From contig NC_092679.1 in the NCBI RefSeq assembly GCF_964355755.1, forward strand, positions 372,001 through 436,000: a stretch of DNA of 64,000 bases, written 5' to 3'. A model generated the notes under the pieces. It worked only from the letters and a program-made list of their open reading frames with translations. It had not been told where the DNA came from and searched no databases. Position 1 is the stretch's first letter. Each line of letters opens with the position of its first letter. Below are positions 14,901 to 20,900 of this stretch, in pieces. Both the position numbers and the translations under genes were made by a program. The stretch comes from Antedon mediterranea. Taxonomy: Eukaryota; Echinodermata; Crinoidea; Comatulida; Antedonidae.

Positions 14901-17900
14901 TAATATCTAATTGGCTGTCTCAACAGGCGGCCGAATACGGCCAACTACCTGTAATGTTAACTAATATCTAATTGGCTGTCTCAACAGGTGCCCAAATACA
15001 GCCAACTACCTGTAATGTTAACTAATATCTAATTGGCTGTCTCAACAGGTGCCCAAATACGGCCAACTACCTGTAATGTTAACTAATATCTAATTGGCTG
15101 TCTCAACAGGTGCCCAAATACGGCCAACTACCTGTAATGTTAACTAATATCTAATTGGCTGTCTCAACAGGTGCCCAAATACGGCCAACTACCTGTAATG
15201 TTAACTAATATCTAATTGGCTGTCTCAACAGGTGCCCAAATACGGCCAACTACCTGTAATGTTAACTAATATCTAATTGGCTGTCTCAACAGGTGCCCAA
15301 ATACGGCCAACTACCTGTAATGTTAACTAATATCTAATTGGCTGTCTCAACAGGTGCCCAAATACGGCCAACTACCTGTAATGTTAACTAATATTTAATT
15401 GGCTGTCTCAACAGGCGGCCGAATACGGCCAACTACCTGTAATGTTAACTAATATCTAATTGGCTGTCTCAACAGGCGGCCGAATACGGCCAACTACCTG
15501 TAATGTTAACTAATATCTAATTGGCTGTCTCAACAGGTGCCCAAATACGGCCAACTACCTGTAATGTTAACTAATATCTAATTGGCTGTCTCAACAGGCG
15601 GCCGAATACGGCCAACTACCTGTAATGTTAACTAATATCTAATTGGCTGTCTCAACAGGTGCCCAAATACAGCCAACTACCTGTAATGTTAACTAATATC
15701 TAATTGGCTGTCTCAACAGGTGCCCAAATACGGCCAACTACCTGTAATGTTAACTAATATCTAATTGGCTGTCTCAACAGGTGCCCAAATACGGCCAACT
15801 ACCTGTAATGTTAACTAATATCTAATTGGCTGTCTCAACAGGTGCCCAAATACGGCCAACTACCTGTAATGTTAACTAATATCTAATTGGCTGTCTCAAC
15901 AGGTGCCCAAATACGGCCAACTACCTGTAATGTTAACTAATATCTAATTGGCTGTCTCAACAGGTGCCCAAATACGGCCAACTACCTGTAATGTTAACTA
16001 ATATCTAATTGGCTGTCTCAACAGGTGCCCAAATACGGCCAACTACCTGTAATGTTAACTAATATTTAATTGGCTGTCTCAACAGGTGCCCAAATACGGC
16101 CAACTACCTGTAATGTTAACTAATATCTAATTGGCTGTCTCAACAGGCGGCCGAATACGGCCAACTACCTGTAATGTTAACTAATATCTAATTGGCTGTC
16201 TCAACAGGTGCCCAAATACGGCCAACTACCTGTAATGTTAACAAATATCTAATTGGCTGTCTCAACAGGTGCCCAAATACAGCCAACTACCTGTAATGTT
16301 AACTAATATTTAATTGGCTGTCTCAACAGGCGGCCGAATACGGCCAACTACCTGTAATGTTAACTAATATCTAATTGGCTGTCTCAACAGGCGGCCGAAT
16401 ACGGCCAACTACCTGTAATGTTAACTAATATCTAATTGGCTGTCTCAACAGGTGCCCAAATACGGCCAACTACCTGTAATGTTAACTAATATCTAATTGG
16501 CTGTCTCAACAGGCGGCCGAATACGGCCAACTACCTGTAATGTTAACTAATATCTAATTGGCTGTCTCAACAGGTGCCCAAATACGGCCAACTACCTGTA
16601 ATGTTAACTAATATCTAATTGGCTGTCTCAACAGGTGCCCAAATACGGCCAACTACCTGTAATGTTAACTAATATCTAATTGGCTGTCTCAACAGGTGCC
16701 CAAATACGGCCAACTACCTGTAATGTTAACAAATAAGTAAAAGGTTTTTTCTGGTAAATGTATGACAACTAATATTTAATTGGCTGTCTCAACAGGCGGC
16801 CGAATACGACACTGCAAAGATCAACTAACTGTTCTTTCTTATTTCTATATTACAAACAGGACCATACTAAAAAACTTTAGAGAAGTATATGGAAATGTTG
16901 ACAGTGTACAAGGGGTAATAGAAATATTGTAAGTAATGAACTATAAGCAAAAATTAAACACATACTGTATACCAACCTCAACGTTTATTGCACTTTTATC
17001 TTGTGTATACTTAAATGCCTGATAATGTACCAGGTTTGGATGGTTCAACTTCATTAGAAAAGAGAATTCTTGCTCAATACTCTGAAGCTGTACAAAGTAA
17101 ACATAGAGTTTTAAAGTAGAATGTGATTGCAGATACATATTACTAGAACAGTACACTGTGTAAACACTAATGTAAATTAATATGTGAACTAATACTAACT
17201 TGTTTGATACAGCTGTCAGCTAAACACTAATGTAAATTAATATGTGAACTAATACTAACTTGTTTGATACAGCTGTCAGCTAAACACTAATGTAAATTAA
17301 TGTGTGAACTAATACTAACTTGTTTGATACAGCTGTCAGCTAAACACTAATGTAAATTAATGTGTGAACTAATACTAACTTGTTTGATACAGCTGTCAGC
17401 TAAACACTAATGTAAATTAATATGTGAACTAATACTAACTTGTTTGATACAGCTGTCAGCTAAACACTAATGTAAATTAATATGTGAACTAATACTAACT
17501 TGTTTGATACAGCTGTCAGCTAAACACTAATGTAAATTAATGTGTGAACTAATACTAACTTGTTTGATACAGCTGTCAGCTAAACACTAATGTAAATTAA
17601 TATGTGAACTAATACTAACTTGTTTGATACAGCTGTCAGCTAAACACTAATGTAAATTAATGTGTGAACTAATACTAACTTGTTTGATACAGCTGTCAGC
17701 TAAACACTAATGTAAATTAATATGTGAACTAATACTAACTTGTTTGATACAGCTGTCAGCTAAACACTAATGTAAATTAATGTGTGAACTAATACTAACT
17801 TGTTTGATACAGCTGTCAGCTAAACACTAATGTAAATTAATATGTGAACTAATACTAACTTGTTTGATACAGCTGTCAGCTAAACACTAATGTAAATTAA

Positions 17901-20900
17901 TATGTGAACTAATACTAACTTGTTTGATACAGCTGTCAGCTAAACACTAATGTAAATTAATGTGTGAACTAATACTAACTTGTTTGATACAGCTGTCAGC
18001 TAAACACTAATGTAAATTAATGTGTGAACTAATACTAACTTGTTTGATACAGCTGTCAGCTAAACACTAATGTAAATTAATGTGTGAACTAATACTAACT
18101 TGTTTGATACAGCTGTCAGCTAAACACTAATGTAAATTAATATGTGAACTAATACTAACTTGTTTGATACAGCTGTCAGCATTCTTCTCTTCATCAGGAA
18201 GTGGTTTGCGTCCTTTACTGTGTTTCCATTTCATAATCCATTCACATACTGCAACAAGTTGCCCACTACCACCATCCATTCCAACATACACCTTGCTACC
18301 ACTGATCCCCTCACCTAAATAACAATATTATCATATGTTGATGATGAGCAAAATGTGTCTATGTATATTCTTTAGGTAGCCATAGTCATTTACACCTTCT
18401 ATCATTTGAAAAAAGGATCTAAAGCTCTAGCTTTAGGTTTGGAATGCTGGTGATAGGTGGGTGGTTGTATTTTGTTCTGTATGAGATTTTAAATTTGTGG
18501 GTTGTACACTTGGTACTTTACTACTGATGGAAACAAATAAAAAAAGACTATAAGATATACAGCAATAGGTAAGCCTTACCTAGACATGCTCCCCTGTGTA
18601 TCGTCCTATCATCAGTCTTGGTATTGAACTTTGTTACTATTACTGATCCCTCACGTTTGCTGTTCTTCATTTGACAATTACCTTTTGACTCCTTACTAAA
18701 ACTTAAGTTTCTGTAAAAAAACAACACTCTTGTAAGTACAGTATACAATCAACATAGTACTTGAGACAGTATAATTTTGTTCTATATAATAATTTGTTTT
18801 ATTTACCGAGTTCTGCCTTTGATAGTCTTTCCGTCCTCCCCGGGATCTGGCTGACGTCGTCTTTTTATTGGAGAACTATTTGAACTTGAACTCTGACTTC
18901 CGTCGTCTTGATTTGTTTCTTCATTCTACACAACAAACAAAACTAAATCTATACAAATACACAATTTGTTATGGCCTGTCCTGGATAACAATAAATACAT
19001 TTTGTTGGCCTGACCTGGTTACCAATAACTAAAGTTTGTTTCCCTGACCTGGTTAGAAATAACTAAAGTTTGTTTGCCTGACCTGGTTAGTAAACACTAC
19101 AGTTTGTTTGCCTGACCTGGTTAGCAATAAATAAAGTTTGTTGGCCTGACCTGGTTAGCAATAACTACAGTTTGTTGGCCTGACCTGGTTAGAAATAACT
19201 ACAGTTTGTTGGCCTAACCTGGTAAGCAATAACTAAAGTTTGTTTGCCTGACCTGGTTAGCAATAACTAACGTTTGTTGGCCTGACCTGGTTAGCAATAA
19301 CTAAAGTTTGTTGGCCTGACCTGGTTAGCAATTTCCTTTTTTTTTCTCTCTTCCTTTATAGCTGCTTGTAAATCCTGTCTTCTTTGCAGTTCTTTATCGA
19401 TTTCTTTTCTCTACAAACATATATTAAGAATATAATGCACGAATAATTTTCACAATTATAAAAATATACTTTATTATAATGTGGTACTTGTTTTGGATTT
19501 TTCTCTACAAATAAGTAAGAAAAATATGATAAATGTTGCTCAAATTAGATAACAAATGCAAATCAATTAGATTATAATTCCCTTTATACTTATACATAGT
19601 AGAATAATTCAATTAGATTATTACTATTACAGCAATTACAATATAACACTGTACACTCATGGGTATACAATTTGAACTACGACCTTTTTTTCAATGATTC
19701 ATCAAGTGTTCAGATTCACTAGTAAATATCAAACCTCTTTTTCTTTAAGTTTTCTTTGTTGTTCAACTTCTCTTTGCTGCTCTTGTGCTATTTTTTCTTG
19801 TTTCTTTTTTTGAGCTGACATCATTGCATCGTAGAAAGACTCATGTTGTGGCACATTGTGTTTATGTAGGAATTCAGTTACAATTTGAGACAACTCTAAA
19901 ATCATCACCTATAAGTCAATATACAAATCCGATTGGAAAGACTTTTAAATGTATTTGTTTATTTCATTTTTATTATATATTATTTCAAACACATCCAACA
20001 GCAAGAAGCCAATAACAGGATGCTGCCTTATAAAAATGTGTTCTAGCATTTCATCATTTTCTTGAATTATTATAAATCTATTATTTTATTGTGATATGAT
20101 GAATAAATGTATATTTATATATATTTGTATCATACCTCTCCTTTAAGTTTGTTAGCCTTCAGTAAAACATCCTGTTTTAGAGTCTTCAACTTCTCATTTG
20201 ATATTCCTTTCGAATTTTCAAAATGAATCTCTGGTATTCTATCAAAATTATAAATGTATGAAACATAAACATTATTTGTAATAGTAAAATCTTGTGAAAT
20301 TTGTTGAAATAATACAATTAAATGTTGTTAATGAACTGTAATAACTTACAATTGTGGATATTCAGGAGGGCACTTAACATGCATATCAACCTTCACATGT
20401 ACATTTGCATTTTCATGTGTACTTTGCTGAGGTTTTAAATGCAACTTAATATCAGGAGGGCGGTACACCTAGACAGAAATAATATGCATCAAAATTAATA
20501 ACATTCGATTTTGAAATTCAAATTTGAATACGAAAAATGTTTTTAGGGACGGCTTGAATGGTACTTACTTAAATCTATAGTGAGATTCCAGTATTTGAAC
20601 CTGTAACTTCTTTCTAAAGGCCCAGGGTAAACATCATTAGTACCACATAACCTTCATTAATGGAATCATGGCTCAACAATTTCAAATAACTAATTGTCAG
20701 TTACACTAATCTATACTGTTGCTAACATTTTATAGGCTAAATGATTGTTTTTAAATGTCTACTAGTATATATAGTAAGAAGTTACAAAACAATGAAATGG
20801 TAAATTGAATAATTTTTATTTATTTATTTTATTTCCAAACCCAACCATCAGCAAGAGAATTTCGGCCAAAAAAAAAAAATGTGTTAAATAATTATTGAGA

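What the first reader, a model, noticed from the sequence alone, without database searches (positions are those of the whole stretch)
17161..18314. Seventeen tandem copies of a GCN2 exon end with its 5' splice site
The 60-bp unit spans the junction of GCN2 exon 8: 21 coding bases, the donor GTTAGT and intron. Seventeen near-identical donors follow the real exon end. Only the exon-proximal donor keeps the message open: reading into the first intron unit in the GCN2 frame gives an in-frame TAG within 20 codons. Either the splicing machinery reliably picks the first of 17 equal donors, or some transcripts are poisoned and GCN2 level is tuned by copy number.
Basis: partly seen in the sequence, partly recalled or inferred. 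Interest (0 to 1): 0.85.

Follow-up and report, generated by a model that had tools for sequence, protein, structure and literature searches.

The report
Tandem donor arrays at kinase exons
In this genome the end of one exon of the stress-kinase gene GCN2, splice signal included, is repeated 17 times in a row; two more exon ends in the same genome carry similar arrays, a kind of structure already described in lancelets, and most likely only the first copy is used while the rest is removed as intron.

Summary
On the minus strand 17 copies of a 60-bp unit (17161-18180) span the end of GCN2 exon 8 (18314-18160); each unit holds 21 exon bases, the donor GTTAGT and further intron. A solved GCN2 chain aligns without a gap across the exon 8/9 join, so the conserved message ends exon 8 at the first copy. 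Each of the 16 other donors puts a stop 11 codons past the exon end.

It is not a one-off. A second array in the same gene (18972-19332, 34 bp, 10 donors) spans the donor of exon 5. In 180 kb around other multi-exon kinase genes, chosen without regard to repeats, a third turned up: 62 copies of 64 bp spanning a MAPKAPK2-like exon end. All non-first donors (16/16, 9/9, 61/61) give premature stops.

Such exon-boundary minisatellites are known: lancelet 'mirages' and the human IFI6 donor minisatellite. Their frequency here is not clearly above random placement. Best reading: a passive, locally grown minisatellite; first donor used, rest intronic. Copy-number tuning of GCN2 by poison splicing is not excluded, but nothing here supports it; RNA would decide.

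The parts
18160..18314 (-). GCN2 exon 8, 155 nt, ending ...ATCAAACAA|gttagt
   Evidence: phases, open frame; gapless alignment to a GCN2 chain across the exon 8/9 join
17161..18180 (-). 17 x 60-bp array spanning the exon 8 donor: 21 exon bases, GTTAGT, further intron per unit
18160..18180 (-). last 21 coding bases of exon 8 (codons ADSCIKQ), which are the exon part of copy 1
16977..17087 (-). GCN2 exon 9, the acceptor partner (tacag|CTTCAG)
19321..19410 (-). GCN2 exon 5, ending GCTAACCAG|gtcagg
   Evidence: its end rests on splice signals and phase, since the protein alignment is poorly conserved with a gap 3 residues past this join
18972..19332 (-). second donor-spanning array: 34 bp x 10.6, 12 exon bases plus CAG|GTCAGG per unit; GT kept in 10 of 10 full units, the partial 11th has GA
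13742..16735 (-). 61 bp x 49.1 array inside GCN2 intron 9; does not reach either exon
7000..21145 (-). GCN2 gene, exons 1 to 23 as modelled (3' part not modelled)

Best explanation
This is an exon-boundary minisatellite of the kind called 'mirage' in lancelets. A 60-bp segment that happened to cover the last 21 bases of GCN2 exon 8 and the first 39 bases of intron 8 was duplicated in tandem and grew by unequal exchange to 17 copies, lengthening intron 8 from about 112 to 1072 nt. Splicing joins exon 9 to the exon-proximal donor, and the other 16 donors are removed with the intron. Shown: the array, its units, the frame, the protein-level need for donor 1, and the recurrence at two other exon ends. 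Inferred: the growth route, and that donor 1 is used in most transcripts, probably because only donor 1 sits behind the full 155-nt exon while each of the others follows 21 exon bases and intron, and because it is transcribed first.
For: Array and unit. Gapless GCN2 alignment across the exon 8/9 join. Only donor 1 of 17 gives an open message. Same layout at exon 5 (donor 1 of 10) and at a MAPKAPK2-like exon (donor 1 of 62; gapless to MK2 chain 3gok across the join). In the MAPKAPK2-like array 50 of 62 copies turn the Ser of DMWSLGV into Leu while copy 1 keeps Ser, as in the aligned MK2 chain: copies other than the first look free of coding constraint. DNA searches place each of the three arrays at one site of the genome, so growth is local (these searches skip very common words). 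Collapsing each array to one unit leaves introns of 112, 69 and 110 nt. Papers: lancelet mirages do not disturb regular splicing according to RT-PCR (PMC3087553 passage; PMC3902484 passage).
Against: No RNA was examined; use of donor 1 is inferred. Donors 2 to 17 are identical in sequence to donor 1. In human IFI6 two downstream repeat units are used as donors (PMC4526556 passage). In human duplicated genes with tandem repeats at exon-intron boundaries, 66% of intron modifications also have transcripts that keep the repeat in the exon (PMC2812944 passage). In the older 34-bp array the donor core varies less than the rest (1 of 11 against 11 of 23 columns, P 0.030; 1 of 9 against 11 of 25, P 0.083; core chosen after looking), which could hint at constraint on distal donors. 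Copy 1 of the MAPKAPK2-like array having Ser would also occur by chance in 12 of 62 draws.
Confidence: 0.83

Rival explanations
1. Poison-donor dial: a steady fraction of transcripts uses donors 2 to 17, carries the TAG at codon 344 and is degraded, so the array and its copy number set GCN2 output.
For: All 16 distal donors lead to the same stop; donors are identical; downstream repeat donors are used in human IFI6 (passage).
Against: No RNA or population data. The same layout in two other exon ends, and the match of observed frequency to random placement within sampling error, suggest by-standing rather than a GCN2-specific device. Any distal donor use in any frame is likely to hit a stop in such AT-rich intron, so the stop itself is weak evidence.
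Confidence: 0.08
2. Assembly artefact: fewer copies in the animal.
For: Units are nearly identical; no reads could be examined.
Against: Two unit variants are interspersed along the 17 copies; the 62-copy array mixes several variants; arrays of this kind are common in the assembly, 22 in the window and 23 in the 180-kb sample with period 18 or more and 2.8 or more copies.
Confidence: 0.04
3. Units act as tiny alternative exons: internal AG sites and donors are spliced in a chain.
For: With a low exon penalty my gene finder calls two small exons of 13 and 20 nt alternating through the array.
Against: These vanish when the exon penalty is raised to 11 or 13; such exons are not in the aligned GCN2 chain.
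Confidence: 0.02
4. A mechanism that favours 5' splice sites (for example breaks or R-loops there) seeds minisatellites in this genome.
For: Three donor-spanning arrays seen, no acceptor-spanning one recognised. In GCN2, 2 of the 3 large intron arrays span donors, P 0.052 under random placement.
Against: P is 0.19 if either exon end would have counted; two small arrays of the gene (11605-11684, 13019-13065) were left out of that count; the window was picked for this array; the unselected sample gave 1 of 16 arrays read by eye, near the 10-17% per-array expectation.
Confidence: 0.12

Closest known systems
Lancelet 'mirages' (Adh3, globins BflGb6 and BflGb9, troponin C, PGBD5; PMC3087553 and PMC3902484, passages)
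   Same: Tandem repeats whose unit spans an exon-intron boundary; unit length in the reported range (10-72 bp in Adh3, about 150-160 bp in globins, 60 and 108 bp in PGBD5); splice signals repeated.
   Different: Copy number here (17, 10, 62) is above the 3 to 6 units given for BflGb6; genes are GCN2 and a MAPKAPK2-like gene; normal splicing and length instability, reported in lancelets, are untested here.
Human IFI6 (6-16) minisatellite that provides multiple splice donors (Turri 1995, seen only as a citation and as described in PMC4526556)
   Same: A minisatellite at an exon end that repeats the splice donor.
   Different: There, downstream repeat units are used and give in-frame isoforms as described; here every downstream donor leads to a stop. 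Unit of 12 bp in IFI6 is recalled.
Human variable tandem repeats at exon-intron boundaries in segmental duplications (PMC2812944, passages)
   Same: Minisatellite growth at exon ends changes introns.
   Different: Those are discussed as intron formation and retention; here the exon is unchanged in length.

Membership tests
Mirage (exon-boundary minisatellite) | Repeat unit spans an exon-intron boundary | tested here: met
   for exon 8; for exon 5; for the MAPKAPK2-like exon
Mirage (exon-boundary minisatellite) | Local tandem growth, not a dispersed repeat | tested here: met
   one site per array in own-genome DNA searches, with the stated limit that common words are skipped
Mirage (exon-boundary minisatellite) | Regular splicing undisturbed | not testable with these tools
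   no RNA data
Mirage (exon-boundary minisatellite) | Length instability between haplotypes or somatic cells | not testable with these tools
   one assembly, no reads
Mirage (exon-boundary minisatellite) | Described in lancelets | not tested
   organism not identified; three paper searches for it gave no match and one listing gave no assembly of this size
IFI6-type multiple-donor minisatellite | Repeated donors at an exon end | tested here: met
   17 of 17 donors CAAGTTAGT
IFI6-type multiple-donor minisatellite | Downstream repeat donors are used | not testable with these tools
   no RNA data; such use would give a stop at codon 344

The most novel reading that the evidence does not exclude
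Length-variable donor arrays act as inherited splicing dials: each extra unit adds a competing poison donor, so copy number at GCN2 (two arrays in series) and at a MAPKAPK2-like gene lowers productive message by a graded amount, and such dials are spread over many genes of this genome (one per 180 kb sampled would mean about 2,000, with a 95% Poisson range of roughly 50 to 11,000, from a sample biased to multi-exon genes).
Probability: 0.06. Interest if true: 0.8.

Novelty: new member of a known kind. Interest (0 to 1): 0.42.

Why it matters
Seventeen, ten and sixty-two near-equal donors behind one exon are natural versions of the classical duplicated-splice-site experiment. If donor 1 is always taken, position and exon context alone settle the choice between equal donors; if not, array length is a heritable control of GCN2, the kinase that senses amino-acid shortage. 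It also shows a coding exon end taking part in minisatellite turnover, and extends a structure that the papers I saw describe in lancelets to what is probably another lineage.

Tried and rejected
Dispersed repeat: rejected for the three arrays, one site each.

Enrichment of arrays at donors: not shown. Selection on distal donors: inconclusive. Among 18 window arrays whose flanks were listed I recognised no coding exon running into an array; judged by eye.

Sample of 18 pieces of 10 kb: picked from the 140 Pkinase matches for short open frames without inner stops, not for repeats. TRF gives 39 arrays (period 10 or more, 2.0 or more copies) or 23 (period 18 or more, 2.8 or more copies). Of the 23, I read the flanks of 16 by eye (the output was cut, and the minus-strand view of L042:1967-2147 was not seen); 7 were not read (L038:7938-8008; L044:2866-2955, 2976-3064, 4404-4495, 7945-8011; L045:6528-6583; L048:6135-6195). 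The gene finder was trained on GCN2; at the setting used for the sample it recovered 18 of 23 GCN2 exons exactly and added 13 other calls. Its models for the other loci were not validated, and several exon-end overlaps that it reported (L032, L034, L036, L037, L038, L044, L048) had no recognisable protein support on reading, L036 only from its predicted peptide; the L044:2866-3064 overlaps were not followed up. The 30 loci were mostly single-exon kinase frames and served only for codon counts and repeat density.

Species: not identified.

Full report
The array. On the minus strand of the window lies a GCN2 gene. I built a model of 23 exons from 21145 down to 7000 (where I stopped, so its 3' part is missing); all joins keep the frame and the 1046-residue product has no stop. 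It has RWD and protein-kinase domains and matches PDB chain 8t7t, eIF-2-alpha kinase GCN2, with E 4.7e-136 over the first 649 residues given. Exon 8 is 18314-18160. The tandem array of 17.0 units of 60 bp (17161-18180) starts 21 bases inside this exon and fills most of intron 8. The units differ at one intronic column; exon part and donor are the same in 17 of 17.

Frame. Human-type GCN2 (8t7t; that it is human is recalled) aligns gaplessly across the exon 8/9 join, so the conserved product needs donor 1. Donors 2 to 17 each bring in the same TAG at codon 344, 11 codons past the exon end. The unit is a multiple of three, so the frame is the same for all 17.

A second array in the same gene. 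The 34-bp array at 18972-19332 covers the last 12 bases of exon 5 and its donor CAG|GTCAGG. Ten of ten full units keep GT; a partial eleventh has GA. Donors 2 to 10 all give a stop at codon 208, ten codons past the exon end. The end of exon 5 rests on splice signals and phase, because the protein there is a poorly conserved linker with an alignment gap three residues past the join.

A third, from a sample not chosen for repeats. I took 18 pieces of 10 kb around exon-like kinase matches. In L041 (G000:C9:167400-177399) a gene whose product matches MAP kinase-activated protein kinase 2 (3gok, E 1.7e-140, gapless across the join) has 62 copies of a 64-bp unit over the end of the exon that encodes YDKSCDMWSLGVIMYI. 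All 62 keep GT (42 TTTGTAGGT, 20 TTTGTAAGT); 61 of 61 later donors give a stop at the second codon past the exon end or nearby in the frame tested (61 of 61 with a stop; codon 229 in the six later donors printed). In 50 of 62 copies the Ser of DMWSLGV is Leu; copy 1 keeps Ser, as does the MK2 chain. Units 1 and 3, and 2 and 4, are identical, so the real exon end seems to take part in the exchange between units.

Local growth. DNA searches of the genome find each array only at its own place. With each array cut back to one unit, the three introns would be 112, 69 and 110 nt instead of 1072, 395 and 4014 nt. The genome is rich in such repeats: 15.4% of the window and 7.8% of the 18 pieces lie in arrays of period 10 or more.

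Is the exon end special? If a founder segment falls at random in the introns of GCN2 or over one of their ends, it spans a donor with probability 0.10 (34 bp) to 0.16 (60 bp); two or more of the three large arrays would do so with P 0.052, and would span either end with P 0.19. Two small arrays of the gene were left out, and the window was picked for its array. In the sample one of 16 arrays read by eye spans a supported exon end (7 of 23 were not read). This fits random placement plus tolerance by the splicing machinery. In the older 34-bp array the donor core varies less than the rest, but the test was chosen after looking and depends on the core's limits (P 0.030 or 0.083).

What is known. 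Passages of PMC3087553 describe lancelet 'mirages': minisatellite-like tandem duplications of exon-intron boundaries in Adh3 and globins, unstable in length, with splicing apparently regular, and offered as a route to new introns. PMC3902484 (passage) adds troponin C and PGBD5 and says that mirages do not generate aberrant mRNAs. PMC4526556 (passage) says that human IFI6 uses two downstream repeat units as donors, citing Turri 1995, which is not held. PMC2812944 (passages) reports human repeats at exon-intron boundaries, 66% of whose intron modifications also have transcripts that keep the repeat; this speaks for some downstream donor use and against a strict first-donor rule. So the class is known and both outcomes have precedents.

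Judgement. The array is real in the assembly and belongs with the mirages by anatomy; two functional features of that class could not be tested. The best reading is a passive minisatellite with donor 1 in use. What is notable is the scale (17, 10 and 62 donors), two such arrays in one gene, and the recurrence in a small sample. The organism is not identified: 354 Mb, 18 contigs of which eleven are large, GC 33% in the window; that this does not suit a lancelet is recalled knowledge.

Noticed in passing
13742-16735: 61 bp x 49 array in GCN2 intron 9; each unit reads CATTACAG|GTAGTT on the gene strand, an acceptor-donor-like junction. A run of variant units appears twice about 1.6 kb apart, as if a block of units had been duplicated (by eye).
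   Followed up: no
16735-16790: TTGTCATACATTTACCAG just upstream of the 61-bp array resembles the exon 10 acceptor TTGTACATTTACCAG at 13711 (by eye), perhaps an old copy of an acceptor.
   Followed up: no
17161-18180: The plus strand of each unit reads CTAATACTAACTTGTTTGATACAG, like a branch site followed by a 3' splice site; the donor GTTAGT is the complement of ACTAAC, so this may be chance.
   Followed up: no
L041:5324-6354 and L041:7589-7873: Two further arrays (41 bp x 25, 25 bp x 11) lie in introns of the same MAPKAPK2-like gene.
   Followed up: partly
23380-26440: Minus-strand exons that look like a matrix metalloproteinase with a hemopexin part (by eye, not tested), with small arrays in its introns (24788-24979, 26055-26137).
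   Followed up: no
L010, L014, L016, L017: Four protein-kinase matches within about 17 kb on C8, in long open frames without introns, as if locally duplicated.
   Followed up: no
19020-26000 and other places of the window, for example 13019-13065, 25640-25720: Short imperfect repeats around GCTCTGTCTACACTATCAAACTAG...CCCAAATATGGTAGTGATATG recur, like a small dispersed element with inverted ends (by eye).
   Followed up: no
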